NCBI GenBank assembly: GCA_030280995.1
Contig: JASXTE010000017.1
Coordinates: 23,264,498-23,328,497 of the forward strand
Source: Hemileia vastatrix
Taxonomy: Eukaryota > Basidiomycota > Pucciniomycetes > Pucciniales > Zaghouaniaceae
Reading direction: 5' to 3'
DNA: 64,000 nucleotides
This document shows positions 5,885 to 64,000 of this stretch, one piece after another. The notes beneath the pieces are model-generated. The model had not been told where the DNA came from, did not search any database, and saw only the letters and a program-made list of their open reading frames with translations. Position 1 is the first letter of the stretch. The number at the start of each line of letters is the position of its first letter. The position numbers were made by a program, and so were the translations under genes.

Positions 5885-7198
5885 TTGGCAGTGAATTCCC
5901 ACTTCCCTCATCATGTAAGCCTTCCACAAACAAATATGAAGCACCTCTCTACTAGGAAGCTACTTCACTCAACTATGAATGCTATCACTTTACTTTTTGA
6001 TCTTTACTATAAATCTGACTCTGATTTGGAAGTTGCTTTAGCCCATATGTCTTTTCTTTCCAAAAAGCGTTACATAAACCCAAGGGGGCCAAATCTTCAT
6101 CATGATCGCAGATATGATCTCTGCTCCATTCTCAACATTCCTCAACTAAAATTCATTCAAATATTTTGAATTTCTCTTAATTATTTCTTCAAACTTTATC
6201 AACTCATCTCCAAAAATCCTATATTTCATAACAATTCTAAAAACAAAAAGTGTGTTCCTGCTATTCAACTTGCTGTTGCACTTTGTTGCTTTGGCTCAAA
6301 TGGAAATGGTGCTGCTGTAAGATGTTTGGAAAATCTCTTTACCATAGGATATGGGAAAGTGATATTATACATCAAGCGCTGTATGATTGCTATCCTTTCT
6401 CTCAAGTCTCAAACACTTTCTTGGCCAACTCCACAATAGCAACTTGAATCATCTCAAGTAATGCAAGCTGAAGGTTTCCCTGGATGTGTAGGTTTTTTTG
6501 ATGGCACAACTATAACTTTGAGTCAAAAGCCTGCTTATGATTGCAACCATTAATAAGATCGTAAAAAAAGGTTTCTTCAAAATGTTCTCCAATTTCTCAT
6601 CTTTCATAAACTAACTTTTTACCTTCTTTCTAGATACTCTATTGCTGTTCACTTTGTATGCGATGTCAATAAAAAATTTATTGATTTTCATAGATGCTGC
6701 CCCAGCTCATGTCATGACTCTTTGGTCTTCCAAGGAATGAGGATTTCTCAAACTCCTGACTCATACTTTGACAAATCTCAGTACCTCTTTGCAGACTCAG
6801 CTTATGCAAGTGGAAAGTACATTATACCTGCTTTCCATGGTGCAACTATAGAAAATGACCCCAAAACCATCTTGAATTATCACCTTTCCCAATCAAGAGT
6901 ACAGATTGAACATGCTATTGGGATTTTAAAGGGAAGATTTTCTAGTCTCCGAGAGCTCAGAATCCAATTTCAAAAAAGAATGGAAATAAAAACTGCAAAT
7001 CATTGCATAATGACTTGCGTTATACTCCACAATATTCTAGCTGATTTAAAGGATGAGTGGAATGATCTTTATGAAGAAGAGGATCCTGAACCAGCACCAG
7101 CTCTCCCCTCCCTTGAATCACAAAACATTCATTCAACCGGTATATGCTCTGTCATTATGCCTATTAATCTCCAACATTTCTCTTCACCACCCTTTTAA
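5885..7198 (+). pseudogene. Harbinger-type DDE transposase, element 1
   Basis: DDE_Tnp_4/HARBI1-like transposase that cuts and pastes the element. All three catalytic landmarks are readable across frames: GFFDGTT (first Asp, near 6495), CHDSLVFQ (second Asp, near 6715) and QIEHAIGILKGRF (Glu, near 6905), plus the family's ADSAY motif. The N-terminal part (5885-6169) has an acidic SDSDLE stretch and SFLSKKRY, matching element 2. Frameshifts or stops lie near 6168, 6445 and 6555, so the copy is inactive. The C-terminal 158 residues are intact and end at 7198. Confidence 0.85.
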
Positions 7199-7309
7199 AT
7201 TTTTTTTTTGTACTCTGCCAATTTTCAACTTCCTTTTTTTTTCATTTGTGTTATTTTCATGCTCCATGTTTTATTCACTTGTGTTGGTTTTTTTTTTTGC
7301 ATAACTAAA

Positions 7310-7520
7310 ATTTTGAATTTGCTGTCAACTCTCTTTTTTGGATGTCTCATTTATTTCATTTCATCAGCTCAACATGAAATCACATTTTTTCTGCAATTGC
7401 ATAATTTTTCACTGTTATATTTTTTCATTCATCACTCATATCCATTTCCTCCTCTCCTCAAACATCCATCAAATTTTTTCATTTCCTCTATTTCTTATCT
7501 CATCTCTCCAGGTAAGTCAT
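7310..7520 (+). other. Conserved non-coding block ending in a splice donor
   Basis: This block lies downstream of the transposase stop and recurs in element 2 (24128-24330, minus) and the mini-element (56276-56478, plus). Shared landmarks are CAGCTCAACATGAAATC near its start and CATCTCTCCAGGTAAGTCA at its end. The layout (AG, about 150 nt, then GTAAGT) suggests an untranslated first exon of the downstream Tet-like gene. If so, the palindrome lies in its first intron. This is inference. Confidence 0.4.
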
Positions 7521-7689
7521 TTTTTTTCTAATTTTTGATTATTTTACTCGATAATAATTTATTATTTCTCTTTTTTTTTGTCCTTTTTTTTTGTTTTTTT
7601 TCTGTCCTGTAAGTGCTTTTTTTTTATTTTCAAGGTTAGACTGATTTTGTTTTTTTTGTTTTTTGTTTTTTTCTTTTTTTTTCTTTTTT

Positions 7690-8400
7690 TTCACCCTCTA
7701 TCATCCTGCTTTCCCCCCTCCTTGTCTTCCTCAGTACCCCTCTTTCTCTCCTTCTTGGCCACTGCAACTCCCCCTTTAATCCCTCCTTGCCCACCTTAGC
7801 CCCCCCTTTACCCCCTCCTTGCCCACCTCAAAACCCCCCTTCACCCCCCTTTACCCCCTCCTTGCCCCCTTCAATCCCACATCAAACCCCCCTCAAACCC
7901 CTCGGCACCCCCCCCCCCCAGCACCTACTTATTGAATTGCTAACAATTTGATAAGTTAGTGAACAATTGTTAGCCATTGTTTACTAACTCATCAAATCAT
8001 TACTGATTCAATAAGTTAGGTGTAGGGGGTTTGTGCAGGGGTTTGAGGGGGGGGTTGAGGTGGGGCTTAAGGGGTTCAACAAGGGGGTAAAGGGGGGTGA
8101 AGGGAGGGTTTGAGGCGGGCAAGTAGGGGGTAAAGGGGGGGTAAAAGGGGACTAAAGGGGGGTTTGAGGCGGTTAAGGAGGGGTTAAAGGGGGGTAAAGG
8201 GGGGGTAAAGGGGGGGTAAAGGGGGGGTAAAGGGTGACTAAAGGGGGGTAAAGGGGGGAATGAGAGGGTAAAGAGGGGGTAATGGGGGGGTTTGAGGTGG
8301 GAAAGGAAGGGTTAAAGGGGGGATTGAGGGGGTAAAGGGGGGGATTGAAGGGGTAAAGGGGGAATTGAGGGGGTAATGGGGGGGACTTTTGGGGGGGCAT
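7690..8400. repeat. Pyrimidine/purine giant palindrome, element 1
   Basis: A C/T-rich tract (about 7690-7920) is followed by an AT-rich core (7922-8022) and a G/A-rich tract (to about 8400). The core is an inverted repeat with arms of about 49 bp around a TTAG loop: CACCTACTTATTGAAT on the left pairs with ATTCAATAAGTTAGGTG on the right, continuing inward with few mismatches. The flanking C- and G-rich tracts also pair roughly. The Pro-rich reading frame across 8173-8406 is an artefact of the G-rich repeats. Confidence 0.8.
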
Positions 8401-9049
8401 TTTCAAGCAAAAAAAAGACTAATCTCTGCTTTTTATTTTTTTTTTACAGAATTTTTTTTCTTCCCCTTATTTTCTGGACATTTCCCCCTGTTTTCAAAAT
8501 AAATCAGTTAATTTTTTTTTTATTTTTTTTTGTTTTTGCAAGTAATTAATTGTTTGAAATTTACTGAATTCAATTTTTTTTAATTATATTTTAATAAATT
8601 GGATTGAATGACATCAAGAGGTTTTCCAATAGCAGGTAAGTAATTTTTATTTTTATTTTTTTTTTTGCAATTAAATTTACTGAATTTATTTTAAATTTTT
8701 TTTTTTAATTTACTCTTTTTTTTGGTGAATTTGTTTGTTGTTTCAAGAACTTTATCTGGTATTTCAAAAACCATTCAGGATTTATTTTTATTTTTATTTT
8801 TTGGAAATTTATTTAAAAAAAATTTTTTTTAATTTTTTTTTCCAGGATATTACCTGGTATTTCAAACATAATTCAGGTTTTTTTTTTTATTTTTTATTTT
8901 TTTTCTAAATTTTATACTGATTTTTTTCCTTTTTTTTTTTTACCAAAAATTTTTTTCCCTTTCAATTATTTTACTGATAATTTTTTATTGTTAGGTTTTT
9001 GTTTAATATATATATATAATTCTTATATATATTTTTTTTCAAGACGTTA
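8401..9049. other. T/A-rich interval without gene
   Basis: Long T runs and TTATTTTT repeats, with a TATATATA stretch near 9009. I see no coding sequence. If the upstream block is an untranslated exon, this would be intron. Confidence 0.5.
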
Positions 9050-9299
9050 CACTACGCAATATAGGGGGTGGACTTGCTAGCAAGTCCTCAACCTGAACTC
9101 AGATGGAACTCAGACTGAACTCATACTGAACTCATGCTGAACTCTACTTGGACACCCACCTAAAACTGTTCTGCTGAGTGGTGTTCATCCCTGATTGTAT
9201 GGTTCCTTTATCAATAGCTCAATGTGTGCTCAATCTGTGGTGAGTTTGGGTCCAAGGTTGCGGACTCGCTAGCAAGTCCACCCCCCATATTGCGTGGTG
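9050..9299. mobile_element. CACTA-type MITE, copy a
   Basis: A 250-bp non-autonomous element. The left end is CACTACGCAATATAGGGGG and the right end is the inverse of CACCACGCAATATGGGGGG, giving imperfect terminal inverted repeats of about 38 bp. Each contains an internal palindrome (GGACTTGCTAGCAAGTCC on the left). It is flanked by a TTA target duplication (9047-9049 and 9300-9302). The interior has repeated GAACTCA motifs. CACTA-like ends and a 3-bp duplication fit the CACTA superfamily. Confidence 0.85.
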
Positions 9300-9304
9300 T
9301 TACT

Positions 9305-10585
9305 ATGGAAAATTTAACTCACTCATCTTCATTATAATCGATTTCTTCCGAACCATCTTTATCCTCTCTTTCTTCCTTGTCTTCAAATCTTGAAAGCTCC
9401 AAGAATAACCATCAAGTATATTCAACTTCTTCTTCTTTATATTTACTTTCTTCTATCTCATTAATGTCCTTCAATTCTATTCTTTCTCCCAATCAAACTG
9501 AGCTTTCCTTACCAGAAAATAAAAAGCAGAAAATCATGGAACCAGCTAAAGAATTAAGAAATTCAAAGACAAACTTTAATCAAAAAAGAAAATTGATTAG
9601 GATTAAGATATTTTGCAAAACATTCTTTGGACATTTAGATGATCTCAAATTTTATAAGACTTTAATATCAAATCTTAAGAAAAATATTTTTTTCTAAAAA
9701 CATCAAAAACCTTACAGAAGGCGGTATAGATCTCATTTTTGCAGTTGTCAATAATGGATACAAACCTAAATTCATCTTAGAAGTTCATTCATTTAATGGG
9801 AAAAAGGATGAATTTTTTTGCCAGCTTTAGGATTTATTTTCTACTCTCTATCTGATGGCTTTGGTTAGACAACCCTTATCAAATAGAAATATGATTTCTG
9901 GAGTCATGAAAGGTTTTGGTTGGCAACCAAGATATGATCATGGAGTTTTTTTTGGTATGTAAATATTTTTTATTATAAGTAATTTTTAATTTTGTCATGT
10001 ATTTCAGGAATTTATTCTTTATTGAACAATTTGAAACTGGAGGAAATGGAAGAAGATCTGAAAAGATGGAATTCTTTAGGATCATTTAATATTTTCTTGG
10101 AAAATTTATTTAAAAAATTATGTATTCAAACTTTTCAAAAAAACCATCAACATGCTTTAGAATATGGGTTACCAAATTGGTCTGAACCTGAATGGGAAGA
10201 AGCAATAAATGCTTATGTTTTTTGTTCTAATGTTATCATCAATTATCAAGGATTGTACAATAATGTTCATCTAGATAAACATGATAAGAATTTTCTAACA
10301 TTTGGAGTTTTCTCTTATATTAATCCAGATACTGGTATTCCTATTCCATTACCCTCTTATGATGAGGGACATGGCCTTTATTTTCCTGACCATAAATGTA
10401 TTATTGATTTTGGTAGTGCTAATGGAATATTTGAGGCTATATTGAATTCATCTCAACATCGGCATCAAACAACTAAAGCACCTCCAACTTTAGTTTCTTG
10501 TCAAGGATTTTCCTATTTTGGCTGTTCATCCCAAATAAATGAAGGTCTTATTAATTGTATTAATAATCAAAAAAAAAATAGCTAA
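9305..10585 (+). pseudogene. Tet-like 2OG-Fe(II) dioxygenase, element 1
   Basis: The family oxidises a substrate, methylated bases in characterised TET/JBP proteins, using Fe(II) and 2-oxoglutarate. Exon 1 has a Ser-rich N-terminus, a basic region (KRKLIRIKIF) and the FGWQPRYDHG motif. A 53-bp GT-AG intron (9955-10007) follows and joins to GIYSLL. Exon 2 (10008-10585) carries the core: NVIINYQGLYNNVHLDKHD with a HxD pair, FSYINPDTG, GHGLYFPDHKCIIDFG, a distal HRHQTTKAP and the C-terminal YFGCSSQIN. Damage: a stop near 9335, a frameshift at the A/T runs near 9690 and a TAG in CQL-DLF near 9829. Exon 2 is fully open, with the iron-binding HxD retained. Confidence 0.7.
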
Positions 10586-10789
10586 AAAAATTGTTCTTAG
10601 TAGATCTGTCAAGTATGGCAACTAATATATTATAAAAAATTTTCTATCATTAAATATTTTTTCCAATATTTTTTTCTTTTTTTTCTCTTTTATTAATTTT
10701 TTTATTTATTTTAATTTTTATCTTTTTTAATTTATTTAAATTTCCCTTTTTTTTTTCCTCTTTTTCAATTTTATTTATCCTTTTTAATT

Positions 10790-11125
10790 TTTTTCATTTA
10801 ATTTTGGATTTGTCTCTTCCAATTATTTTTTAAAGTTATGTCAAGATAGATTACTGTTTTTATATAATTGTGCATCTGGCCTTAGGTCCTTCTACTGGCT
10901 ATTACATAAAATAGGGAAACTTGATTGGGACCAGTGAAAATAATTGGTTCTAGAAATTTTCAATTTAAATTTTTTTCATTTAATTTTGGATTTGTCTCTT
11001 CCAATTATTTTTTAAAGTTACATCAAGATAGATTACTGTTTTTATATAATGGTGCATCTGGCCTTAGGTTGTTCTACTGTATTTTATACAAAATAGGAAA
11101 ACTTGATTGGGACTGGTGAAAATAA
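10790..11125. repeat. Tandem duplication, about 181 bp
   Basis: Two direct copies (about 10790-10945 and 10972-11125) share GGATTTGTCTCTTCCAATTA, GATAGATTACTG and GCATCTGGCCTTAGGT. It lies between the 3' ends of the convergent Tet-like and SANT-like genes. The frame at 10925-11119 is not a gene. Confidence 0.7.
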
Positions 11126-11185
11126 TTGGTTGTAAAAATTTTTAATTTTTTTTTCCATTTGATTTCTTTGATTCAATAAATTTCA

Positions 11186-11745
11186 GGGGGGTATTGCCAA
11201 ATTCTCATATCAGACTTTAAAAAAAATGACTTGAAAATTTGATGATACCCTTTCCTTAATTCAATAAAAAACAGGGGGGGTATTACCAAATTTTCATATC
11301 AGACTTTAAAAAAAATTTGACTTGAAAATTTGGTGATAACCTTTCCTTAATTCAATAAAATACAGGGGGGGGTATTGCCAAATTTTCATATCAGACTTTA
11401 AAAAAAATTTGACATGAAAACTTGGTGATTCCCTTCCCTTAATTCAATAAAATACAGGGGGGGTATTGACAAATTTGCATATCAGCCTTTAAAAAAAATT
11501 TAACTTGAAAATTTGGTGATACTCTTCCCTTCAATAAAATACAGGGGGGGGGGGGGGTATTGCCAAATTTTCATATGAGACTTTCAAAATAAAAATTGAT
11601 TTGAAATTTTGGTGATACCCATCCCTTACTTCAATAAAATTCAGGGGGAGTATTGCCAAAATTTCATATAAGACTTGCAAAATTCTTTACTTGAAAGAAT
11701 TTTGGTGATACCCACCCCTTAGTTCAATCAAATGCAGGGGTGGGA
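11186..11745. repeat. Inverted-repeat minisatellite, element 1
   Basis: Six to seven units of 86-99 bp start at about 11187, 11273, 11365, 11455, 11543, 11642 and 11736. Each opens with CAGGGGG and GTATTGCCAAATTTTCA and closes with TGAAAATTTGGTGATACCC, so each unit is itself a hairpin with arms of about 20 bp. Related arrays occupy the same intergenic position in elements 2 and 4. It sits between the convergent genes and may separate or terminate their transcripts (inference). Confidence 0.8.
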
Positions 11746-11958
11746 TTTTGAAATTTTCAAATGTGACTTGAAAATTTTATCTTAAAAAAAATTTTTAACA
11801 TTAAAAATTCTTGAAAAAAATTTTTGAAAAAGAATCTATAACATTAAAATATCAAAATTCAACAAATGATGGATAGAGTAAAGAAATACAGGAAATTAAG
11901 ATAAAATTTTTTGTGCAATTAAATTTGAACAGTTAAAGTTTGAGAGAAATAAAAAAAA

Positions 11959-13700
11959 CTAGTCATCAAACAATTTCTTTATATGTTCAATTTCCTCAAC
12001 AGAATTATTAGATTTAACACATTCTATCAAGAAATCTATCTTTTTGGAATTTTCTTTAAAGTCAAGCTTATATTTCATCTGTTCCGTGAGGTTTTTATGC
12101 TCAAGTGATTTCTCCTCTTTACATGATTTTTCAATACTTAAATATAACTTGAATTTCTTCTCCTTCAATTCTTGTACCCTCTCATCCTTCTGTAAAGAGA
12201 GTTTGTACTTCCTCTCCTCCAAGACTTGTGCCTTATCATCCTTCCGTGAAGAGATTTTGAACTTCTTCTCTTCCAAATCATGTACCCTGTCATCCCTCCT
12301 TGAAGAGAGCTCAAATTTTTGCTTTTCAAAATTAAGAGTCTCTTTAGCAACTTTCACTTGTTCTAGAGTGATAATAAATATTAACAAAAAGTAGAAGAAA
12401 AGCAGAGTAAACACTACGCAATATAGGGGGTGGACTTGCTAGCAAGTCCCCAACCTGAACTCAGGCACAACTCAGATGGAACTCAGACTGAACTCATACT
12501 GAACTCATATTGAACTCTACTTGAAGACCCACCTAAAACTGTTCTGCTGAGTGGTGTTTATCCCTGATTGTATGGTTCCTTTGTCAATAGCTCAATGTGT
12601 GTTCAATCTGTGGTGAACTTGAGTCCAAGGTTGCGGACTTGCTAACAAGTCCGCCCCCCATATTGCGTGGTGAAAGTATTAAGAGGTTTGGTATCACTTA
12701 CCAACATCATGTTTCTCCAAAAATTCTTCAATAGATGAAAAAGGGGTTTGAGATGAAGTATCACTTTTTCTTCTTCTTTGAGAGTGGAAATTAAGACTAC
12801 TTGAAGCCCTTTGATTTTTTTTCAAGGTCACAATTTCCTCTTCATCATTGTTGCTGGCTTTTGACTCAGTTGATTGTGGCTCCTGTGTTTGTTCTTCAGC
12901 CTATTTGGAAATAAGAAAATGTAAATAATGATAAAAATTTGTACTTTAGTTAGATCAGGTTGGTTTATATTGCCATTAGGATCTATTGAAATAATATCTT
13001 GATTTGTGGAAGTTAAATGAGGCAAGGCTTGAGTAGAGGAAGAAGGAAAAAGATTTCTTTTGACATCATGTTTGGAGATAGAATATTCACCATCAAAAAT
13101 GATTGCAGGATTAACATCAGCTCTCTCTCTGAAAATAGCATCCATATATTTAAAGTAAGGACATAAAGAATCAATTTTATCCTCTATGGATTTGATGCCC
13201 TTACTGATATTGAGGTCAGTAATACCAAAAACAGTAGAAGATGAAAGAGGTGTTGCCTTCTTGTATTTGGATCAATAATTCTTGAAGCATTCATACATCT
13301 TTTTGGTTAAAGATCTATTTTTCCCTTGGTCTTATGCCATATTTTGTTGGCCATTAGAAGATAACCATTAAATTTCGATGCTGGGAGCTGTCCTACTTTA
13401 GTCGCATTTTTGGTACCAAAACAAGAATCATAGTTAGATTTAGTTTTCAGCCAGTTGATAAGAATGAGATGATCATCTTTTTTTAATTGAATGGTCTTTG
13501 ATTTCTCAGCTGAGCGGGGGAAAGAGGGAGTAGTCTGATTTGAAGAACAACTGGGGTAAGGCTGCCTTTGAGAAGATCTATGATGAAGGGGAATGTTAAG
13601 ATAATAGAAGATGAAAAGAGAAAAAACAAGTAGATGAGATGGCAAGGTGTTCTGAATGGAGAGAATAGACTGGATAAGATGAGAATGGGAGTGCACAGCA
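11959..13700 (-). pseudogene. SANT/Myb-like gene with coiled-coil tail, element 1
   Basis: Harbinger elements normally pair the transposase with a Myb/SANT-like protein that helps bind the ends. Visible here on the minus strand: LKKDDHLILINWLKTKSNYDSCFG (SANT helix region, near 13470-13400), NGYLLMANKIWHKTKGKID, then YMDAIFRERADVNP (13145 downward). A middle part follows with SQTPFSSIEEFL. The last exon (12414-11959) is strongly charged coiled coil built on repeated LEEKKFK units. It ends FLIECVKSNNSVEEIEHIKKLFDD. Stops break it near 13310 and 13180. A MITE (12412-12672) lies in the intron before the coiled-coil exon. Confidence 0.7.
12412..12672. mobile_element. CACTA-type MITE, copy b
   Basis: 261 bp, closely similar to the element at 9050-9299, with the same terminal repeats (CACTACGCAATATAGGGGG and the inverse of CACCACGCAATATGGGGGG). 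It is flanked by AAA on both sides (12409-12411 and 12673-12675). It lies inside an intron of the SANT-like gene. Confidence 0.85.
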
Positions 13701-18956: not shown

Positions 18957-19606
18957 AAGCTATAGCTGTTATGGCCATCATCAGGGAAACTCAATGATTG
19001 AAATTCATCATTTGGGTTAATTATGAATGGAGTGATTATGAGAATTCGGTATGATAGAAATATTTCAAAAGATACTTTTTTACTCATTGTTATCTTCAAA
19101 AATATAGAGGATATCAAATTTAATAATTTTTTTTCTCCTGGTCTTGAAGCCATTCTTTGTTACAACAACTTGGAGAAGGAAGTTGTGATTTAAATAAATG
19201 AAATAAAAGGACATATATCTAGATTATTCAACCCATCAATTTTTTTAGGAATCAGACATGAACCTTAAACATTTATATCTTTTTCTACTTTATCTGGTAG
19301 TTACAATGATTCATAAAAATGATATGTCAACAAATTTGTAATTTAGTTCTTTAAAAAAATGAGAATCTTATTTTTTTCCAAATTTCAAGAAATATAGTTT
19401 GGCTACAGTTGAATTTGATTTTTCCTATTCATCTTTACCAAGTAGCCTACATGCAAGAAAATTTTCTCAGGTGTTTTTTGGGGAATCAACATTTCTCAGG
19501 TATTTATGTAAAATTAAATCACCTATGGATAATATTTTAAATGAATTTTTTTTAATTCATCTGGAAAAGAAATATCAATTGTGTTTTTCACATCATTAAA
19601 ATTTAT
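18957..19606. other. Decayed transposase 3' flank, no gene
   Basis: AT-rich sequence with short broken frames (for example 19399-19599) that could be the eroded end of the Tnp2 copy. I cannot assign a function. Confidence 0.4.
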
Positions 19607-19660
19607 TAGGGGGTGTCAGTTCTGGAAAATCCGCACTTAACTTAAGTGCGGATTTCAAAC
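19607..19660 (+). repeat. Left terminal inverted repeat, element 2
   Basis: GGGGGTGTCAGTTCTGG followed by a 29-bp palindrome (19627-19655) with 13-bp arms around ACT. It matches the inverse of 25922-25976 and the ends of the element at 55764-57580. Confidence 0.85.
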
Positions 19661-19978
19661 CAAATCAGCACTTACAAATCAGTACTTAAATTTTGCAAAA
19701 AAGTCACTTATTTCAAAAATGGGTGTCAGTTATGACCTCAAATCAGCACTTTTTTCCCTTTTTTTTTCACAACAACATGTTGGCCACAAAACATCCCTTT
19801 CTTTCTTACCCCATCCCTGTCACATGTGACACACTGAACTTCCTCGCTACCTACCCATCAATCCTCGGCACACACCCCTTCCTGAAATTTTCAACATTTT
19901 GACCAGGCATGTTTACATTCTTTTTTACTTATTTCTTCTACCTCTTAATCTTTTTTCTTGTTATGTTCCAGTTTCATA

Positions 19979-21289
19979 ATGCCTCCTAGACATTCCAAAT
20001 CTCAAAAAGTAACTCAAAAATCTTCTTCCTCACAAAAGTCTCCTCGTAAAGCAAGCCCTACACCTGAAAAATCAAAGGCAGGTTCAGGTCAGCTTAAAAA
20101 GGATGATTATCTCATCATAATCAACTTCCTTAAAATAAAATCAAATTTTGAAGCATGTTTTGGATGTGAAAAGTCCACTTGTATTGGACTTCCACCTTCT
20201 TCAAAGGTTAATGGCTACTTATTGATGGCCAATGAAGTAAGGAAGAAAACAAGGGGGAGAATCGATATCAATCCTAAACAAATGAAGGAGAGATTTAAGA
20301 GTTACCATTCAAAATATAAAAAGACCCATCATGCTGCAAATGAAACTCGCTTTGGTATTGACGATGATGATTTGGAGATTGGAATTACTACTGTTTCCGA
20401 AAAGCTCAATGTCATGTGTCCTTTCTATGAGGAAATGGATAATCTTTTTGGCTCCCAAGTTGATGTAAACCCTTGTTTTCTACACGATACTACTAAGCAT
20501 ATACCCTCTGGATCTCAACCATCAATTAATCCTCCTGAAATACCTGTACATCAACAGGATCAATCCCCTCCACCTTCTAACCATAGTTCAGCTGAAGTAA
20601 ATCCCGACTATCAAGCAGAACAATTATATCACAGCAGATCTGAATCCTCAGAGGCCCAAAATTTAAATGTATGTTTACTTTTTGTTTTTTCTTCAATTCT
20701 TCTCTGAATTTCTCTTTCTTTCTAGTCTCCTCCTACTCAAACTCAATCTCCATTAAATTATCTCAATTCTGAACATGTGAATCCCACTTTAGAAGCTGCT
20801 TTAGATGAACTTCCTGAAGCCTCTTGTTCAAACTCCAAACTAAAGCGTCGAGCCTCAACTTAAATGAACTTGAACCATCTATTAAAACGTGGTAATACTT
20901 CAACAAGCTCATTTGGCTCCCTTGAGGATTATTTTGAAAAAAAAGATATAAGTAAGTTTCATTTACTATATATCTTAATCATTAACTCATTTATTTATTT
21001 CAATTTAATTTTCTCAGCAAAATCAACTATTGCGAATAATGCCCTTGACTTTGAGAAGATGAAGTTTGATCATATGCTAAGGAAAGATCAGCAAGCCTTA
21101 GATTTGGAAGAAAAAAAATTTGAGGCAGAGAAGATGGAAAGAGTAAATGACTGTCAATTTTAAAGAGAAATGGCTTCTTGTGAATTGGAAAAACAAGAGA
21201 GTTTTAAAAAAAAAGATTTCATTATGGAATGTGTTAAAAATGGCCAATCTTATGAGGACATTAAAAAATTACTTGACCTTTTCAATTGA
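19979..21289 (+). pseudogene. SANT/Myb-like gene with coiled-coil tail, element 2
   Basis: Three exons: 19979-20668, 20726-20951 and 21018-21289 (introns GT-AG, 57 and 66 bp), together 396 codons. Start at MPPRHSK, preceded by an upstream splice-like pair in the 5' leader. Residues about 45-135 form the DNA-binding region: LKKDDYLIIINFLKIKSNF, VNGYLLMANEVRKKTRGRID, KQMKERFKSYHSKYKKTH. A Ser/Pro-rich middle follows, then exon 3 with ALDFEKMKFDHMLRKDQ and LDLEEKKFEAEKM coiled coil, ending MECVKNGQSYEDIKKLLDLFN. Two in-frame TAA stops (20861-20863, 21161-21163) are the only damage. It is the likely end-binding partner of the transposase. The gene converges on the Tet-like gene. Confidence 0.75.
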
Positions 21290-21554
21290 TAAATTGTTTT
21301 TCTAGTTAATTTAATTTTGTTTGATTTCTTTTTGGTAATATTTTCTTATATGCTGACTTATAAAAGGTCTTGAATATAGTATGTTATTTTTGACAAATTT
21401 TTGAAAATATCATACATTTTTTCTATCTTTACATTCAAGTCAATAAGTTTGCTTATACTTAAAATTTGAAAATATAATAAAAAATTTCTATCTTTACTTT
21501 CATGTCAATAATTTTGCTTATCTAAATACTTCTAAGTCAATAAAATTCAATATC

Positions 21555-21720
21555 TCTTTTAAAAATTTGGCAATACCCTCCCCTGCATTTCATTGAAACA
21601 AGGGGTGGGTACCACCAAATTTTTCTAAGTCATCAATTTCACATGTCAGATTTAAAAAATTGGCAATACCCTCCTCTGCATTTTATTGAAGTAAAGGGTG
21701 AAAGTCATCAAAATTTAATA
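21555..21720. repeat. Inverted-repeat minisatellite, element 2
   Basis: Two units of about 85 bp with TTTGGCAATACCCTCCCCTGC, then AAGGGGTGGGTACCACCAAA. This is the same family and same position as the arrays at 11186-11745 and 59270-59790, here contracted to two copies. Confidence 0.7.
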
Positions 21721-22080
21721 TAATTACATAAATTAATTAATATATAAATAAGATATGTCAAATGTACTACTTTTAAAGTAATGACAATTACTCTAGCCAA
21801 AATTCAGACCAAATCGAGAAACAAAAGTTTGGGACTTTACACAGGTATAGGCTAGAGGAACCCCATGAAACAAATTAATGTTATCATTATTACCATTTAT
21901 ACAACACAAGGTTGTTGGCCCATTACTTTAATTTCATAAATTGAAATATAATATTTATTTATTATAAATTTATGGAAGAATATTAAATATTTGGTGACTC
22001 TACGAATCCCCATACTTTTTAGATCTACCTAAAGAATGTTTGAATTTATCACCTTTTTCTTATTTTTTTAACTTGTTTAT

Positions 22081-23182
22081 TCATTGGATTAACTTTTGAC
22101 TGATCTGGAAAGAGCAACCAAAATGCGTGAAGTCTTGACAAGACTCCAAACCTGGAGGAGCCTTTGTGGTTTGGTGATTATCATAAGAAGAATTCCAAAC
22201 TGTTTCAATGATTCCATTTCCTAATCCAAAATCAATTATACATCTATGATCCGGGAAATATAATCCATGTCCTTTAATTTTTGCAGGTGATGGAATAGGT
22301 TGTCCAGTGATAGGATCAATATATGTTAAAATTCCATAAGTGAGGTAATTGGTATAATTTGAGTCGGTGTGAATTCAGTTATGAAATCCAGAATGAGTGA
22401 TTATAACATTTGAAAACATTAGATCATTACTAATATCTTCCCATTCAGAGTCACACCAATTTGGTATTCCAAATCTCGTAGCAACTTCATGATTTTTTTG
22501 AAAAGCTTTATTGAAGAGTTTTTTAAGTCAAAGAGCAAGAAATGAATTAAATGAAGGTAATGTATTCCATTTTTGAAAATCATTATCTAATTCAGCTTTA
22601 GATAAAGATCTGAGTAAAGAATATATGCCTATTTGAATTAAATTCAGTAAAATGATATTAAAAAATCCAGAAAAATTTTTAAACATACCAAGAGAAAAAC
22701 CTTTTTCAAATCCTGGTCTCCATCCAATTCCAATCATGATTCCACCCAACAAATTCTTATTCCTTAAAGATAAGCGAACCAAAGCCATTTGATAGAGTGT
22801 TATGATGAGATCACAGAGTTGATTAAATGATTCATCTTTTAAACCATTAAAAGAATGGTTTTCGTAAATAAGTTGAGGTTTGAAACTATTATTAATAACA
22901 GCTTTAACTTCATCACCTCCAGTTTCAGTTAAATAATGTATATTTTCAGGTAATGTTTTCGGATATTTTTTTTTTCAACTTTAGTTTTATAGTATTGATT
23001 TTTGAGATATGGCCAAATATTTGATCCAAGTGAATTTCTTTTTTTAAATTTCTTTTATATTGATACTGTTCATTTTTTGTCAATGTTTTAGATGATGATC
23101 GAAAAGAAGTTGAATTTGAAGATGATAATGAAGTTAAAGAAGATGAGAGTGAGGTAAGTGGTGAATCTGAAGTTAAAGACAT
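22081..23182 (-). pseudogene. Tet-like 2OG-Fe(II) dioxygenase, element 2
   Basis: Start at 23182 with a Ser/Thr-rich N-terminus (MSLTSDSPLTSL), then a basic stretch and FGHISKI. A frameshift lies in the A-run near 22970. The frame resumes with YENHSFNGLKDES and GGIMIGIGWRPGFEKG. A 60-bp GT-AG intron (22629-22688) sits at the same place as in elements 1 and 4. Exon 2 holds NVIITHSGFHN, IHTD (HxD pair), YGILTYIDPITGQP, GHGLYFPDHRCIIDFG, NGIIETVWNSS and FTHFGCSFQIS. Two further TGA stops (22528-22530; 22375-22377, just before the HxD) interrupt it. The gene is read in the same direction as the transposase, across the palindrome. Confidence 0.7.
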
Positions 23183-23406
23183 GTATTTTTCTACTTAAAA
23201 AGTTGTTACTTTTCAAACACCCAAAATTACACATTAAAAAAAACTCACTTAATTTAAAATAAAAAAATAAAAAATCCTCAAAAGACTAATAAGAATTTTT
23301 TTTATTTCACTTGAACTTGATGAATATTTTTCTCTAAAATTAAAAAAAAAAAAAAAAAAAAACAAAAAAAAAAAAAACAAAAAACTGTTAAATTTTTTTA
23401 TCACTT

Positions 23407-24000
23407 CCCCATTCCCCTAAATTCCCCTCTCCAAACCCCTCTCCCACCTCCCCAAAACCCTTGTAAAACCCCCCCTCCAACCCCCCCTCCAAATCCCCCT
23501 CAAAACCCCCCCAATACCTCCCTCTAAACCCCCCTAACCTCCCCTCCAACTTACTTAACGATTCGTTAGCGAATTGTTAAGTTAATGAACGAATTGCTGC
23601 AATCGTTCATTAAATTAACGATTTGTTACCAAATCGTTAAGTGATGTTTAAGGGGGGGTAGGAGGGATTTGAGGGTGGATTTGGGGGTGTTTTGAGGGGG
23701 ATAGGAGGGGGGTTAGAGGCGGATTTGGAGGGGATTTGGAGGGGGGATTTGGTGGATTTGGTGGGGGGATTTGGGGGATTTGGTGGGGGTGGAGTGGAAT
23801 GAGGGGAGGAAATGAGGAGACCAACAAGGGGGAGAAAGGGAGAGATGAGACCGAAGAGGGAGAGAAGGGAGGTTAGAGTGAGCCAAGGAGGGGGGAATAA
23901 GGCAGCCAAAGGGGGGGGAAGGGGGATGTATCCATTCCAAGGAGAGGGTAAAGGTGGGAAAAAGCCCAGGCCAAGGGGGGATAAAGAGAGAAAAGAGGGA
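23407..24000. repeat. Pyrimidine/purine giant palindrome, element 2
   Basis: A C-rich tract (23407-23548), an AT-rich inverted-repeat core (23549-23647) and a G-rich tract (to about 24000). Core arms are about 47 bp: ACTTAACGATTCGTTAGCGA on the left pairs with TACCAAATCGTTAAGT on the right, and the inner TTAATGAACGA pairs with TCGTTCATTAA, around a CTG loop. The core sequence is unrelated to that of element 1. A long A-run (23340-23390) lies beside it. Confidence 0.8.
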
Positions 24001-24127
24001 GAGAGAGAGAGAGAAAAAAAAAAGGTTAATTTTACCTATAAATTTAAAAACAACCACTTACAAAAAAAAACCAAAACCAAAAAACCAAAAAACCAAAAAA
24101 CCAAAAAAAAAAAATTAGCAAAAAATT

Positions 24128-24330
24128 AAGTAAAAAAATAAAATGACTTACCTGGAGAGATGAGTTGAGAAAAAAGAAATATAAGTGAAATTGATTGAGT
24201 GATGTAGGAAGAGAGGAGAAAATGGATATGAGTGAAGAAAAAAATGAGAGTGACTGAAAAAATATGCATTTGCTGAAAATATGTGATTTCATGTTGAGTT
24301 GATGAAAGAAAACACAGAGAGAAAAAAAAT
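24128..24330 (-). other. Conserved block with splice donor, element 2
   Basis: Minus-strand counterpart of 7310-7520: CTCAACATGAAATCACAT, then about 150 nt, then CATCTCTCCAGGTAAGTCAT. It could be an untranslated first exon of the Tet-like gene. Confidence 0.4.
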
Positions 24331-24436
24331 AAGACTTTAACAGCAAATTCAAAAACCAAAAAAATATGCAAAAAAATTTACCATTCTCAGTGAATAACAT
24401 ATGCAAATTGATCATTTGAAGAGAAAGAAAAAAAAA

Positions 24437-25702
24437 TTAAAATTGCGTTGAAAAATGTTGGAGTGTTATTGGAAGAATTTTTGCCCTTATACTAGTTGAT
24501 TGAGAAATAGAAGTGTTGGATATAGTCGGAGGTGAATCAACTTGTTCATCTTCATACAGCTCTAACCATTGATCTTTGAGGTCAGCAAGTAGGTTATGAA
24601 GTATAGTGCAACACAGAATCCAGTTGATCACCGCATCCATTTCAGATTTATTTCTAAGAGGACTTCTTAATTCCCTTAAACTAGAAAAACGGCCTTTCAA
24701 GATTCCAATAGAATGTTCAATATGTACTCTTGACTTTGCCAAATGATTGTTGAATTTGGCATTTTGACTGTCTTCTGAAGCTGCTCCCCAAAAAGCAGGA
24801 AGTACATACTTTCCATTCACATAAGCAGAATCTGCAAGAAGATACTGATCTTCATCAAAGAATTTTTCAGGTTCATTTGAAATTTGCATTCTTTGGAAGA
24901 TGTAGGAGTCATGACATGAGCCAGGATAGCCAGCGAAGAATGATATAAATTTTTTGTTTACATCACATATAAGCTGAAATTTAATTGAATATCTATAAAG
25001 AAGATATATTTGTTTGTGTTAGTTTCAAAGAGAATGAAAGGAGTTAAAAATAATCTACCTCTTTTTACAGTCAAAGTAATTGTTTCCACCTTGAGCAGGT
25101 TTCTGGCTCAAAGGAATAGTAGTACCATCAACAAAACCAATACATCCTGGGAAGCCCTCTGCTTGCATAACCTGAGATGATTCAAGTCGCTCTTCTTTTT
25201 TTGGCCAGGTGAGAAGTTGAGATTCCAAGGAGTTGATGGCAGTGATACATTGTTTGGTATAAGTGTTAACTGAACCATACCCTAAATCAAAGACATTTTA
25301 TAAACGTTTCAAAGCGGCTCCATTACCATTTGAACCCAAACGACATAGTGTGATGGCCAATTGAATTGAAGGATGTCGTTGTTCTTTTTGAGAATTATTG
25401 TGAAATATGGGATGATCTTGAATAAGCTCAAGCAATTTAAGGAAACATTCCTGAGAAGTCCTGAACAGCTGTCTAAAACTGGGCGTAGATAGGTTAAGAA
25501 GTGTTTGGATGGTGTACTTGGGGGTATGAAGTACTTGAGGCTTTCTGGGAAGAAGGTAACGTTTCGTGGCCATTTTTGATAAAAAGACAAAATCTTCTTC
25601 TAGATCAAAATCAGAATCAGAATCAGAGTCCAAGAGCAGTTCAAGAGCCATGAAAGTCATTGCTTTATGTAATTTATCACGATTTGAAAGTGAGGAAGGC
25701 AT
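24437..25702 (-). pseudogene. Harbinger-type DDE transposase, element 2 (one stop)
   Basis: Exons 25059-25702 and 24437-24992 (66-bp GT-AG intron) give 400 codons. The start (MPSSLSN) is supported by the same start in the copy at 57271. Order: acidic SDSDSDFDLEED near residue 30, FVFLSKMATKRYLLPRKPQ, a helical middle, GFVDGTTIPLSQKPA (first Asp), PGSCHDSYIFQRM (second Asp), LADSAYVNGKYVLPAF, then RVHIEHSIGILKGRF (Glu). All DDE residues are present. The only visible lesion is a TAA at 25298-25300, where the copy at 56819-57271 has GAA and element 1 has Glu. Confidence 0.85.
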
Positions 25703-25921
25703 AACTCTTATATGATATGATATGAAGATGTAAATGATGTACGATGTTTTGAGTTATGAAGTGTTATGCTGTGGAGTGATGCGTATGAATGGGATGATGC
25801 TGACAAATCAGTGAAATGGGACTTGATGGTGAAATCAGCACTTTTGGTTGAGAAAGTGCGGATTTGAGTGAAATAAGTGACTTTTTTCACTTTTGAAATC
25901 CACCAGTATTGGGGCTAGTGT

Positions 25922-25976
25922 GTTTTGGAAATCTGCACTTAGATAAGTGCGGATTTGCCAGAACTGACACCCCCTA
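25922..25976 (-). repeat. Right terminal inverted repeat, element 2
   Basis: GCACTTAGATAAGTGCGGATTTG followed by CCAGAACTGACACCCCCTA, the inverse of the left end, with the same internal hairpin. Confidence 0.85.
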
Positions 25977-25977
25977 A

Positions 25978-55763: not shown

Positions 55764-57580
55764 TAGGGGGTGTCAGTTCTGGCAAATCCGCACTTAACTT
55801 AAGTGCAGATTTCAAACCAAATCAGCACTTAAATTTTGAAAAAAAGTCACTTATTTCAAAAAAGGGTGTCAGTATGACCTCAAATCAGCACTTTTTTCCC
55901 ATTTTTTTTCACAACCACATTTTGGCCACAAAACATCCCTTCCTTTCTTACCCCATCCCTGTCACATGTGACACACTGACCTTCCTCGCTACCTACCCAT
56001 CAATCCTCGGCACACACCCCTTCCTGACATTTTCAATATTTTGGCCAGGTATGTTTACATTCTTTTTTACTTATTTCTTCTACTTCTTAATCTTTTTTCT
56101 ATGGGTGTCAGTTCTGACCTCAAATCAGCACTTTTTTTGTGATTTTTTTTTTCAAAACCACATGTTGGCCACATCATCCCTTTCTTTCCTATACCATTTT
56201 GTACTCTCCAAATGTCCTCTTTGTGTACTTCATTCACTTGGGTTGGTATTTTGGTTTGTTGCATATTCATTTTTTTTGGAATTTACGGTGAATTTTTTTT
56301 TTGGATGGCTCATTGGTTTTCTTTCACCAGCTCAACATGAAATCGCATATTTTCTGAAATCGCATATTTTGTCAGTGATATTTTTTTTCATTCATCCCTC
56401 ATTTACTTTTCCTATTCTCCTCCAACATCCCTCAAACAATTTGGTTTCATTCATTTTGTCATCTCATCTCTCCAGGTAAGTCACTTTATTCTTTTTTTTT
56501 GATTTTTTGATTACTAATTATAATGTTTTTTGTTTTTTTCTGTTTATTTTATTTTTTTTATCTAAATTTTTTTTGTAAGCGGTTATTTTGGATTTCAATG
56601 GTATAATTAACCTTTTTTTTCTCTCCCTCTTTACTTTCTTTTTTAGCTCCATCACCCTACTCTTCATCCCTCCTTGTCATGGTCATTATCCCCCCTTTCC
56701 CTTATTTCACTTTTTTTTAGCTCCATTTCATTGAAACACATACATTGCACATTCTTTATGCATTTCACTTACTCCATATTCAATTTCACCACAATTCCAA
56801 CATCAATCTTTCTCACTCTTGTTTGGTATAAGTGTTAACTGAACAATACCTTAAATCAAAGACATTTTCTAAACATTTCAAAGTGGCTCAATTACCATTT
56901 GAACCCAAACGACATAGTGTGATGGCCAATTGAATTGAAGGATGTCGTTGTTCTTTTTGAGAATTATTGTGAAATATGGAATGATCCTGAATAAGCTCAA
57001 GAAATTTAAGGAAACATTCCTGAGAAGTCCTGAACAGCTGTCTAAAACTGGGTGTAGATAGTTTAAGAAGTGTTTGGATGGTGTACTTGGGGGTATGAAG
57101 TACTTGAGGCTTTCTGGGAAGAAGGTAACTTTTCGTGGCCATTTTTGATAAAAAGACAAAATCTTCTTCTAGATCAGAATCAGAATTGCAATCAGAGTCC
57201 AAGAGCAGTTCAAGAGCCATGAAAGTCATTGCTTTATGTAATTTATCACAATTTGAAAGTGAGGAAGGCATAACTCTTATATGATATGATATGAAGATGT
57301 AAGTGATGTACGATGTTTTGAGTTATGAAGTGTCATGCTGCGGAGTGCTGCCTATGAATGGGATGATGCTGACAAATCAGTGAAATGGGACTTGATGGTG
57401 AAATCAGCATTTTTGGTTGAGAAAGTGCGGATTTGAGTGAAATAAGTGACTTATTTCATTTTGAAATCCACCAGTATTGGGGCTAGTGTGTTTTGGAAAT
57501 CCGCACTTATTTAAGTGCGGATTTGGTCAAATTTAAGTGCGAATTTGTAAGTGCGGATTTGCCAGAACTGACACCCCCTA
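55764..57580. mobile_element. Chimeric mini-element of the Harbinger/Tet family
   Basis: 1.8 kb, with terminal repeats TAGGGGGTGTCAGTTCTGG and its inverse, both with the AAATCCGCACTTA hairpin, flanked on each side by ATAA. The left part copies the SANT-gene end of element 2 (to about 56095). A second GGGTGTCAGTTCTGACCTC start follows at 56103, then the conserved CTCAACATGAAATC...CCAGGTAAGTCA block (56276-56478). The right part is the first transposase exon. It is a deletion and rearrangement derivative, movable only in trans. Confidence 0.8.
56819..57271 (-). pseudogene. Truncated transposase first exon in mini-element
   Basis: Very similar to the first part of the element 2 transposase: MPSSLSNCDKLHKAMTFMAL, an acidic DCNSDSDLEED stretch and FVFLSKMATKSYLLPRKPQ. 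A TGA follows GSNGN. Similarity ends at about 56819, just after SVNTYTKQ, so the catalytic domain is absent. Confidence 0.85.
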
Positions 57581-57989
57581 ATAAGAGTAAGACTAAATAG
57601 TGCGTAAATAAAAGTATTTATTTTATTTGCAATAAAACTCTGAACCCTTTTGTCCATCACATTTTAGTGTAAGAACATTTGATTTGAAATATTGAATAAA
57701 TAAAATTTAATTAAAGGAATTTGAAAAAGTTTTTTTTTCTTTTTAAAATTTTATATATTTTTTTAATACTAATTTTTATTCCCATCTCATCTGTATTATT
57801 GAGCATGGTGTTTAGGAGTAAAAATATATATGGGACAAGTACTTATTTTTATTAATTATCTAAATTACTTAGTGTACTTAGCTATTTAATTGTAAGTCAT
57901 ACATAAGTATTTAATAAATAATTAATTATTAATAAGGATCTAAAATGCGTGGCTTCACCTCAGTAAGATAATCAATTATTTTACTGGGT

Positions 57990-59121
57990 AAGTCTAGTAG
58001 CCTGGCTGACAGTTATCTACTAATGGCCAATAAATTATGGAATAAGACAAAGGGAAGGATAGATTTTTTACCTAAAAAGATTTCTGAAAGTTTCAAGAAC
58101 TACTGAGACAATTACAAGAAGGCAAAGACTCTTTCATCTTCCACTGGTTTTGGTATTACCAAAATTGATATCAATAAGGGCATAAAATCCATATATGATA
58201 AACTTGAATATTTATACCCTTACTTAAAAGAGATAGATGCTATTTTTGGAGAGAAAGCTGATGTTAATCCTTCAAGCATGTTGAATGTTGAAGATTCTAT
58301 CTCTAAACATGATTTTAAAACAAATCTTTTCCCATCCTTTTCCTCCACTCAAGCCTCCTCTGTTCTAAATTCAACAAATTTGAATAGATTTTCTATAGAT
58401 CCTTATGGTAATTTAACCAAACCAAATCTAACTCAAGTTTTTTTTTCTTTTATCTTACCAATTCTTTTTTTATTTAAATTTTCTAATTTCTGAAAAGACT
58501 GAAGAACAAATGCAGGAGCCACAATCAACTGAGTACAAAGCCAGCAACAATAATGAGGAGGAAAATGTGACCTTTAAAAAAAAGCAAAGGGCTTCAAGTA
58601 GTCTAAATTTCTACTCTCAAAGAAGAATAAAAAGTGATACTTCATCACAAACCCCTCTTTCTTCTATTGAAGAATTTTTGAGAAATTTGATGCTGGTAAG
58701 TGATACCATACCTCTTAATAATTTAATCTGCTTTTCTTCTAATTTTTGTTAATATTTATTATCACTCTAGAAAAAGTGGAAGTTTCTAAAGAGGCTCTTA
58801 AGTTTGAAAAGCAAAAATAAGAGCTCTCTTTATGAAGGGATCATAGGGAGCACGACTTGGAGGAGAGGAAGTTCAAGATCTCTTTACAGATGGATGATAG
58901 GGCACAAGACTTGGAGGAGAAGAAATTTGAGCTGACTCTTAGTATTTAAAAATCAAAGAAAGAGGAGAAAACACTCAAGAATGAAAACTTAATGGAACAG
59001 ATGAAATTTAAGTATGATCTTGAAGAAAATTCAAAGAAAAAAAATTTTTTTAATGGAATGTGTTAAAGTCAATAAATCTTATGAGAAAATTGAATGTCTA
59101 ATAAAAATTTTTAATTACTAG
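57990..59121 (+). pseudogene. SANT/Myb-like gene with coiled-coil tail, element 4
   Basis: Readable blocks: SYLLMANKLWNKTKGRIDF, GFGITKIDINKGIKSIYDKL, LKEIDAIFGEKADVNPSSM, EEQMQEPQSTEYKASNN (58501 onward), SQTPLSSIEEFL, then LKFEKQK and repeated LEERKFK/LEEKKFE coiled coil to about 59121. It is closer to the element 1 copy than to the element 2 copy. The N-terminal SANT half is missing or scrambled before 57990, and several stops are present (for example after SFKNY near 58104 and within the coiled coil). Confidence 0.65.
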
Positions 59122-59269
59122 TGTGTTTTATTTCATTCATACTTCAACCGTCCATAATTATTTTTACATAAAATTTTACAATAATTTCCTGTATTTCATT
59201 ACTCTATCCATCATTAGTTGAATTTTTGTATTTTAATGCTAAAAATTCTTTTTTAAATAAATTCTTAAA

Positions 59270-59790
59270 GTCTCATTTGAAAATTTGCCAATCACCCCCC
59301 ACTGCATTTTCTTGAAGTAAGGGGTGGGTATAACCAAAATTCTGTCAAGTCAAGAAACTTTAAAGTCTTATATGAAAATTTGGCATTACTACCCCCTGCA
59401 TTTTACAGGTATCACCAAAATTCTTTCAAGTCAAGAATTTTGCAAGTCTTATAAGAAATTTTGGCAATAATCCCCCCTGCAATTTATTGAAGTAAGGGGC
59501 AGGTATCACCAAAATTTCAAGTCAAAAAATTTTGCAAGTCTGATATGAAAATTTGACAATACCCCCCTGCTGTATTTTATTGGATTAAGGGATGGGTATC
59601 ACCAAAATTTTTACAAGTCAAAAAATTTACATGTCAGATTTGAAAATTTGGTAATACCCACCCCTGCATTTTATTGAAGTAAGGGGTGGGTATCACCAAA
59701 ATTATTATAATTCATCAATTTTGCATGTCAGATTTGAAAATTTGGAAATACCCCCCCTGAATTTTATTAAACTAAGAGGTGGGAATCACC
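59270..59790. repeat. Inverted-repeat minisatellite, element 4
   Basis: About six units of 80-100 bp with ATTTGGCAATACCCCCC, TGCATTTTATTGAAGTAAGG and GGTGGGTATCACCAAAATT. Each unit folds on itself through TTTGGYAATACCC against GGGTATCACCAAA. Same position between convergent genes as in elements 1 and 2. Confidence 0.8.
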
Positions 59791-60096
59791 AAAATTTAAT
59801 ATAATTACATAAATTAATATATAAACAACTAATATATATCAATTTTCCTAGTTTTGAAGTAATGACAATTCCTCTAGCCAAAATGTGGATACATATAGAA
59901 ACAAATGTTTTGGACTTTTCACAAGTGTAGGCAGAGGAACCTCATGAAACAAAGAAAAGTTTTCATGATTCCCATTTATGCAAAAAAAGGTTGTTGGCCC
60001 ATTGCTTTAAATTAGGAATTTGAAATATAAGAGTTATTTATAAAAAATTTATGAAAAAAAAAAATATTTGATGACTCTACTCATCCCCATACTTTT

Positions 60097-63972: not shown

Positions 63973-64000
63973 CTGAGGCAGTCAAGAAGGGCTGAAAGGA

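What the first reader, a model, noticed from the sequence alone, without database searches (positions are those of the whole stretch)
19607..25976. Harbinger-type transposon carrying a Tet-like dioxygenase and a SANT gene
Seen: one pair of terminal inverted repeats encloses a DDE transposase, a Tet-like 2OG-Fe(II) dioxygenase and a SANT/Myb-like coiled-coil protein. The same three-gene plan, with the same intron positions, recurs at 5608-13935 and (minus transposase) at 57950-62480. Known: TET/JBP expansion in basidiomycetes is associated with KDZ transposons, while Harbinger elements normally have only transposase plus a Myb/SANT protein. Inference: the element brings its own DNA-base oxidase, perhaps to counter or erase cytosine methylation on itself or its target.
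Basis: partly seen in the sequence, partly recalled or inferred. Interest (0 to 1): 0.88.

Follow-up and report, generated by a model that had tools for sequence, protein, structure and literature searches.

The report
Rust transposon carrying a TET gene
A jumping gene in what appears to be a rust-fungus genome carries, besides the enzyme that moves it, a gene resembling those that strip methyl marks from DNA; copies with that gene jump as whole units, yet a version that spread very recently has lost it, so one genome offers a natural test of what the extra gene is for.

Summary
Confirmed in the main. 19608-25975 is a Harbinger-type (PHIS) element with matching terminal inverted repeats, a DDE_Tnp_4 transposase, a Tet-like PF20515 gene and a third gene; all three are broken in this copy. 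The kind is published: TET+ "PHISTA" elements of rust fungi (Kojima 2025, PMC12730594).

New here: (1) in the window's own 748-Mb genome, 8 of 10 sampled open Tet genes lie between both repeats, 7 of those 8 with matching 3-bp duplications, so Tet moves with the element; (2) the duplication is AWT (30 of 32 copies read), not only TA; (3) a 2,554-bp derivative with open transposase but neither Tet nor third gene is identical at 19 of 19 fetched sites, a recent Tet-free burst; (4) element 3 (57972-62460) is a mosaic whose switch lies in a palindromic array beside Tet; (5) a C-to-G skew switch lies between Tet and transposase in 5 of 5 copies examined.

That Tet erases methylation to help the element is inference. 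The SANT call is weak (Pfam E 0.001-0.007, below cut-off). No terminal repeats were recognised for elements 2 and 3.

The parts
19608..25975 (.). Element 1, PHIS/Harbinger-type transposon with three broken genes
   Evidence: Matching ends, gene content, coordinates
19605..19607 (.). Left flanking triplet ATT (right one, 25976-25978, is AAT; the 3-bp duplication does not match in this copy, TA does)
19608..19634 (+). Left terminal inverted repeat; imperfect match continues to about 19669
   Evidence: (pair I24)
25949..25975 (-). Right terminal inverted repeat; imperfect match from about 25914
   Evidence: (pair I24)
19979..21288 (+). Third gene: exon 1 19979-20668 open; later exons with stops; weak Myb/SANT-like match in exon 1
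21534..21715 (.). Palindromic repeat array between the convergent 3' ends of third and Tet genes
   Evidence: (family D13)
22084..23187 (-). Tet-like 2OG-Fe(II) oxygenase gene, two in-frame stops and a frame change; HxD and distal H present
23413..23778 (.). Palindrome with C-rich then G-rich arm, with G-quadruplex-type motifs, upstream of Tet
24440..25702 (-). DDE_Tnp_4 transposase, two exons, one in-frame stop; three acidic residues present by eye
55765..57579 (.). Element 4: same ends, matching AAT duplication, most of the interior lost, filler with an inverted stretch; no Tet gene
5933..13580 (-). Element 2 (relic): transposase, Tet, third gene in the same order, reversed; ends not recognised
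57972..62460 (+). Element 3 (relic): third gene and Tet gene, no transposase found; mosaic; Tet metal ligands lost
59390..59687 (.). Interval of the switch from element-2-like to element-1-like sequence in element 3, within its palindromic array (59233-59815)
7691..8237 (.). C/G-skewed palindrome of element 2
61870..62460 (.). C/G-skewed stretch of element 3; palindrome 62163-62326

Best explanation
Shown: 19608-25975 is a decayed copy of a PHIS/Harbinger-type cut-and-paste transposon whose full-length form carries three genes (transposase, Tet-like oxygenase, third protein) and duplicates AWT on insertion. Tet travels inside the element. A 2,554-bp descendant that lost third and Tet genes but kept ends and an open transposase multiplied very recently. 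Inferred: the Tet enzyme oxidises methylated cytosine on the element (its ends hold CpG sites in a CpG-poor genome), which helps full-length copies to be expressed and to move; it is a helper kept by selection, not part of cutting and joining. Inferred: the short form succeeds because it is small and because whatever third-protein or Tet activity it needs comes in trans from full-length copies.
For: Tet-first sample: 8 of 10 between both ends, the other 2 with one end in the 1-kb windows; 7 of 8 with matching triplets. L030 and L031, 2 of 3 copies fetched, contain third, Tet and transposase sequence at 95-96% identity to element 1; L031 has an open 347-residue Tet frame, PF20515 E 2.7e-31. Same gene order in three diverged elements. 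Codon-position bias in Tet in all three pairs, dN/dS 0.22-0.26. 88 of 150 scored Tet matches without a stop in the match (hand count). CpG observed/expected 0.22 in the window, CpG in both ends; CpG methylation of TEs in two other rusts (passages). Short form: 19 of 19 identical, all with matching triplets, transposase open. Smaller Harbinger-type elements move more in yeast (passages).
Against: No methylation, expression or enzyme data. The form that spread most recently has no Tet, so Tet need not be carried by the mobile copy; whether it acts in trans is unknown. The third copy, L029, shows only the transposase half. Tet is broken in all three elements of the window. Neither Tet nor its profile matches a solved Tet structure by sequence, and the model of a relative was too poor to compare. 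The Tet sample was not random: I chose copies resembling the element-1 type, one already known to lie near a transposase hit.
Confidence: 0.6

Rival explanations
1. Passenger: Tet moves with the element but does nothing for it; size decides success, and the short form won by losing ballast.
For: A Tet-free form is identical at 19 of 19 sites while the left ends of 10 Tet-bearing copies average 97.8% identity; small Harbinger-type elements move more in yeast (passages).
Against: Purifying pattern in Tet codons in all three pairs, many open Tet frames (88 of 150), same gene order in three diverged elements.
Confidence: 0.2
2. Different chemistry: the enzyme makes another DNA modification (for example as algal CMD1 or kinetoplastid JBP do), which marks or protects the element rather than demethylating it.
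For: Sequence is far from solved Tet enzymes (no match); Kojima leaves this open for the PU type.
Against: No second enzyme for further modification was recognised in the element; nothing tested directly.
Confidence: 0.12
3. Accidental nesting: an unrelated Tet gene landed inside a Harbinger element.
For: Copies with the same ends but without Tet are abundant.
Against: Same order in three diverged elements and 8 of 10 sampled Tet genes between both ends at the predicted distance.
Confidence: 0.03

Closest known systems
TET+ PHISTA (Harbinger superfamily) of Puccinia and Austropuccinia, Kojima 2025 (PMC12730594; abstract, introduction, methods, results, discussion and figure legends read; not conclusions, figures or supplements)
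   Same: DDE transposase of the PHIS type, Tet/JBP gene, a third gene, TA on both sides, rust hosts, and the proposed escape from methylation.
   Different: The duplication reads as AWT, not TA alone; the third protein has a weak Myb/SANT-like match where Kojima states there is none; an abundant Tet-free derivative, a Tet mosaic and the palindromes are not mentioned in the parts read.
Pangu group of the PHIS superfamily (Han et al. 2015, PMC4482050; abstract, section 6 and passages read)
   Same: ANT duplications; ends beginning AG; second protein without a clear known motif.
   Different: Han et al. describe two genes and no Tet; Kojima's tree puts PHISTA near Nuwa, and I did not test the Pangu clade.
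Canonical PIF/Harbinger and Nuwa elements
   Same: DDE transposase plus, in Nuwa and PIF/Harbinger, a Myb/SANT protein.
   Different: An extra Tet gene; duplication AWT. The TWA duplication of canonical Harbinger is recalled, not from a call.
KDZ elements with Tet genes of basidiomycetes
   Same: Transposons that carry Tet/JBP genes.
   Different: Other transposases; Kojima gives 7-8 bp duplications for them.
mPing/Ping of rice (passages of PMC10288884)
   Same: A shortened form that spreads alongside longer relatives.
   Different: mPing encodes neither protein; the short form here keeps an open transposase.

Membership tests
PHISTA (TET+) | Transposase of the rust PHISTA lineage | tested here: inconclusive
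   PF13359; elements 1 and 2 group with 6 P. coronata / P. striiformis proteins (UFBoot 85, SH-aLRT 98) inside a 17-row clade whose other rows are all rust proteins (100/99) (39 of 120 listed hits used); Kojima's reference families were not at hand.
PHISTA (TET+) | TA on both sides of the insertion | tested here: met
   31 of 32 copies: 22 of 22, 7 of 8, elements 1 and 4. The repeated unit is longer: AWT in 30 of 32.
PHISTA (TET+) | Tet/JBP dioxygenase of PU type inside the element | tested here: met
   PF20515, HxD and distal H in elements 1 and 2; the two protein hits are A. psidii. The PU label itself follows from that resemblance; Kojima's PU alignment was not at hand.
PHISTA (TET+) | Third protein without Myb/SANT domain | tested here: inconclusive
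   Sub-threshold PF13837 in element 1, L030 and L031 (E 0.0038, 0.00099, 0.0067; cut-off 27 bits, scores 17-20), no match in the pieces of elements 2 and 3; model too poor.
Canonical PIF/Harbinger | 3-bp TWA duplication (recalled) | tested here: not met
   AWT in 30 of 32 copies.
Pangu | ANT duplication and ends beginning AG or GG | tested here: met
   AWT and A-GGGGG.
Pangu | Transposase within the Pangu clade | not tested
   No Pangu reference sequences at hand.
KDZ | KDZ transposase | tested here: not met
   The transposase is DDE_Tnp_4.
TET/JBP family | Oxidation of a methyl base in DNA | not testable with these tools
   Sequence only.

The most novel reading that the evidence does not exclude
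Tet as a public good: full-length elements carry Tet and third protein, a streamlined transposase-only form lives off both and has just swept through the genome, Tet modules are exchanged between element lineages by recombination in the palindromic array beside the gene, and the C/G-skewed palindrome upstream keeps the Tet promoter open when the element is methylated.
Probability: 0.2. Interest if true: 0.82.

Novelty: new member of a known kind. Interest (0 to 1): 0.6.

Why it matters
Whether transposon-borne Tet enzymes help their transposons is open; Kojima 2025 says the function is not experimentally validated. Here one genome holds Tet-bearing and Tet-free copies with the same ends and closely similar transposases, both young, so methylation, transcription and spread can be compared copy by copy. 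The AWT duplication bears on how the lineage is classed. The mosaic suggests a route by which Tet genes could be exchanged between related elements; for transfers between superfamilies Kojima found no repeats or palindromes at the borders.

Tried and rejected
Structures: both AlphaFold models too poor (mean pLDDT 46.1 for the third-gene exon, 35.4 for the A. psidii Tet relative). Foldseek with the first gave no match at E <= 0.001; I did not search with the second. PDB by sequence: no Tet match. Third protein: no homologue in the protein database. Terminal repeats of elements 2 and 3: none recognised. Idea that element 3 returns to element-2-like sequence upstream of Tet, which would make Tet a clean cassette: best match 48 bp, reached by 1 of 200 shuffles, and a 45-bp match to the element-1 spacer was reached by 0 of 200, so nothing is claimed. 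Special CpG poverty of the skewed stretch: 9 of 38.7, 3 of 51.3 and 1 of 45.0 expected, near the ratio of each element as a whole (0.29, 0.15, 0.04), so not special. Skewed GC-rich stretches also occur elsewhere in the window (13 of the 19 stretches lie outside the three pairs); what is confined to the three is the adjoining C-then-G pair and the G-quadruplex-type motifs. Genome-wide counts of the short form, of the ends and of the third gene were asked for and never answered. Host species not determined; A. psidii seems unlikely because the best A. psidii transposase is 45% identical. Two literature searches were malformed and gave nothing (one search was resent as 13).
Full report
What is there. 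The window holds an element of 6,368 bp at 19608-25975. Its ends are inverted copies of GGGGGTGTCAGTTCTGGMAAATCCGC, found in the window (up to 4 mismatches) only here and at the ends of a second copy, 55765-57579. Inside lie a third gene on the plus strand (19979-21288), a Tet-like gene on the minus strand (22084-23187) and a DDE_Tnp_4 transposase on the minus strand (24440-25702). Pfam gives PF13359 at 5.6e-27, PF20515 in three consecutive pieces of one frame (0.0092, 2.2e-05, 2.8e-10), and for the third gene only Myb_DNA-bind_4 at 0.0044 for the longer open frame and 0.0038 for exon 1. No gene is open throughout: Tet has two stops and a frame change, the transposase one stop, the third gene stops in its later exons. 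Element 1 is therefore a dead copy.

Relatives in the window. Element 2 (about 5.93-13.58 kb, reversed) has all three genes; nucleotide identity to element 1 is 53% (third), 62% (Tet) in the alignment and 67% over the transposase. Element 3 (57.97-62.46 kb) has the third and Tet genes only. Intron 2 of the third gene sits at the same place in all three (by eye). No ends were recognised for elements 2 and 3. The Tet metal ligands (HxD and distal H) are present in elements 1 and 2 and lost in element 3. Element 4 (55765-57579) has the same ends, is 91.5% and 96% identical to element 1 in its outer parts, keeps only the start of the transposase gene, and has a filler 71.5-85% identical to other parts of the element, one stretch inverted. 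Interrupted gap repair with template switching would explain it (inference).

The genome. The window lies in an unnamed assembly of 747.6 Mb in 791 contigs. That it is a rust fungus is inferred: 18 of the 20 best transposase hits are Puccinia or Austropuccinia proteins (one is Orobanche, one unnamed), and both Tet hits are Austropuccinia psidii, 35 and 39% identical. In a tree of 39 of the 120 listed hits (140 found), elements 1 and 2 group with 6 P. coronata and P. striiformis proteins (UFBoot 85, SH-aLRT 98) inside a 17-row clade of which the other 15 rows are all rust proteins (100/99). GC of the window is 33%, CpG observed/expected 0.22.

Does Tet move with the element? A Pfam search of the genome gave 10,849 first-look candidates, of which 150 were scored; 88 of the 150 have no stop in the match (hand count). 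From these 88 I chose 10 (nine resembling the element-1 type in match and frame length, one with a 393-residue frame; not random, and one of them was already known to lie near a transposase hit) and fetched 1-kb windows where the two ends should lie. All 10 show at least one end, 8 of 10 both, and 7 of those 8 have the same triplet on both sides, read by eye from the printed flanks; the exception is L048/L049. Of three further copies fetched by transposase score, L030 and L031 contain third, Tet and transposase sequence at 95-96% identity to element 1, with one end visible each because the fetched stretch was too short; L031 has an open 347-residue Tet frame; L029 shows only the transposase half. 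Chance nesting is thereby disfavoured.

Tet-free copies. A Pfam search for the transposase gave 7,945 candidates, 150 scored; 71 of the 150 (hand count) share E 3.2e-24 and 94.0 bits. I fetched 19 of these 71 plus one row of 94.6 bits. The 19 are one 2,554-bp element with no difference among them, on 9 contigs, each between matching triplets; the other is a 3,333-bp form. The short form consists of the first 449 and the last 1,729 bases of the long element at 95.5-97% identity to element 1, around about 350 bp of other sequence; the transposase is open in both exons, the third gene is cut off near its start and the Tet gene is gone. The sample was drawn by transposase score and says nothing about the proportion of Tet-bearing copies. 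The left 440 bp of the 10 sampled Tet-bearing copies are on average 97.8% identical to one another (94.5-99.3). The latest burst seen is thus Tet-free. The different flanks of the 19 speak against an assembly artefact.

Target site. Kojima gives TA. TA is on both sides in 31 of 32 copies read, and in 30 of 32 the next base outward agrees too, always A or T: 22 of 22, 7 of 8, element 4 but not element 1. The simplest reading is a 3-bp duplication AWT around an element that begins with A and ends with T. ANT is the duplication of Pangu and of bacterial IS5 (Han et al. 2015, section 6 read). Element 1 (ATT/AAT) abuts a minisatellite on its right, and a later change there is possible.

A mosaic. 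In the third gene element 3 is 81.9% identical to element 2 and 56.6% to element 1; in Tet it is 73.9% identical to element 1 and 59.4% to element 2. Of 1,070 sites that side with one or the other, 417 to 115 favour element 2 left of the best breakpoint and 138 to 400 right of it; the gain is 156.9 log units against at most 8.8 in 500 shuffles of the labels, and positions within 3 log units span 59390-59687. This interval lies within the palindromic array (59233-59815), related arrays of which stand at the same place in all three elements. Two broken elements joined at one site would look the same, and with three sequences the direction cannot be told.

Other non-coding features. Between Tet and transposase (or, in element 3, upstream of Tet) elements 1, 2 and 3 have a palindrome with a C-rich and a G-rich arm (3 of 3); L030 and L031 show the same skew switch (the palindrome itself was not tested there). 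All 19 G-quadruplex-type motifs of the window (11 plus, 8 minus) lie in these three stretches. The short form lacks it. Its function is unknown; a methylation-resistant Tet promoter is a speculation, and CpG poverty there is no greater than in the rest of each element.

Selection on Tet. Differences at codon positions 1, 2, 3 are 47, 38, 93 for elements 1 and 3 (244 codons, p 4e-7), 95, 66, 131 for 1 and 2 (273 codons, p 2e-5) and 90, 78, 129 for 2 and 3 (253 codons, p 8e-4); dN/dS 0.22-0.26. Transposase 1 v 2: 62, 39, 92 (154 codons; dS saturated). Third gene: biased for 1 v 2 and 1 v 3, not significantly for 2 v 3 (29, 20, 36; p 0.1). Pieces that did not align in one frame were left out, so these are partial.

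Third protein. The Myb/SANT label rests on sub-threshold matches to one Pfam family at the same place in element 1, L030 and L031 (0.0038, 0.00099, 0.0067; scores 17-20 against a cut-off of 27), with none in the pieces of elements 2 and 3, and on a weak hhalign match to plant GT-1 (P 0.048, probability 1.1%; 10 shuffles of GT-1 gave P 0.21-0.9). Kojima states that no PHISTA third protein has the domain. I think it likely but unproven.

Known or new. Kojima 2025 reports TET+ Harbinger elements named PHISTA in six rust species including A. psidii, proposes escape from methylation and describes transfers of Tet genes between superfamilies. My searches (open-licence PMC papers only) listed no second paper on PHISTA; I looked into five further papers by passages or sections. 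The element is a new member of a published kind. The identical Tet-free burst, the AWT reading, the mosaic and the palindromes were not in what I read; Kojima's figures and supplements were not available to me.

Mechanism. Shown: mobility of the full-length form with Tet inside, a purifying pattern in Tet, and spread of a Tet-free form. Inferred: that Tet acts on methylcytosine, that CpG sites in the ends (19632, 19649, 25859, 25950) matter, and that the short form borrows the third protein. In A. psidii and P. graminis TEs are CpG-methylated, young ones more so (passages). In yeast smaller Harbinger-type elements excise and insert more (passages), so size alone could explain the short form. 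Confidence in the helper role was set at 0.6 for the whole statement, since its structural part is firm and its functional part is not.

Noticed in passing
own genome: 10,849 first-look candidates for the Tet-like family, 150 scored, with several frame-length classes (for example 218, 325-352, 393 residues); this suggests several Tet-bearing families and a large Tet expansion. Tet-like fragments also turned up in 4 of 20 fetched 9.5-kb stretches.
   Followed up: partly
33860-41660: AT-rich tandem array with a period of about 606 bp, a dozen diverged copies.
   Followed up: no
9036-9312 and 12411-12672: Two copies of a small element with inverted arms, about 90% identical, the second inside intron 2 of the third gene of element 2.
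   Followed up: no
25977-26408: 36-bp minisatellite that begins at the right end of element 1.
   Followed up: no
4525-5607 and 14189-15242: Direct repeats, 72% identical, on either side of element 2; unexplained.
   Followed up: no
29058-30528: Nested inverted repeats, up to 99% complementary.
   Followed up: no
49388-50146: Open frame with a Transposase_21 match, E 5.8e-06, just below its cut-off.
   Followed up: no
30845-31758 and 63064-63976: Inverted pair about 80% identical.
   Followed up: no
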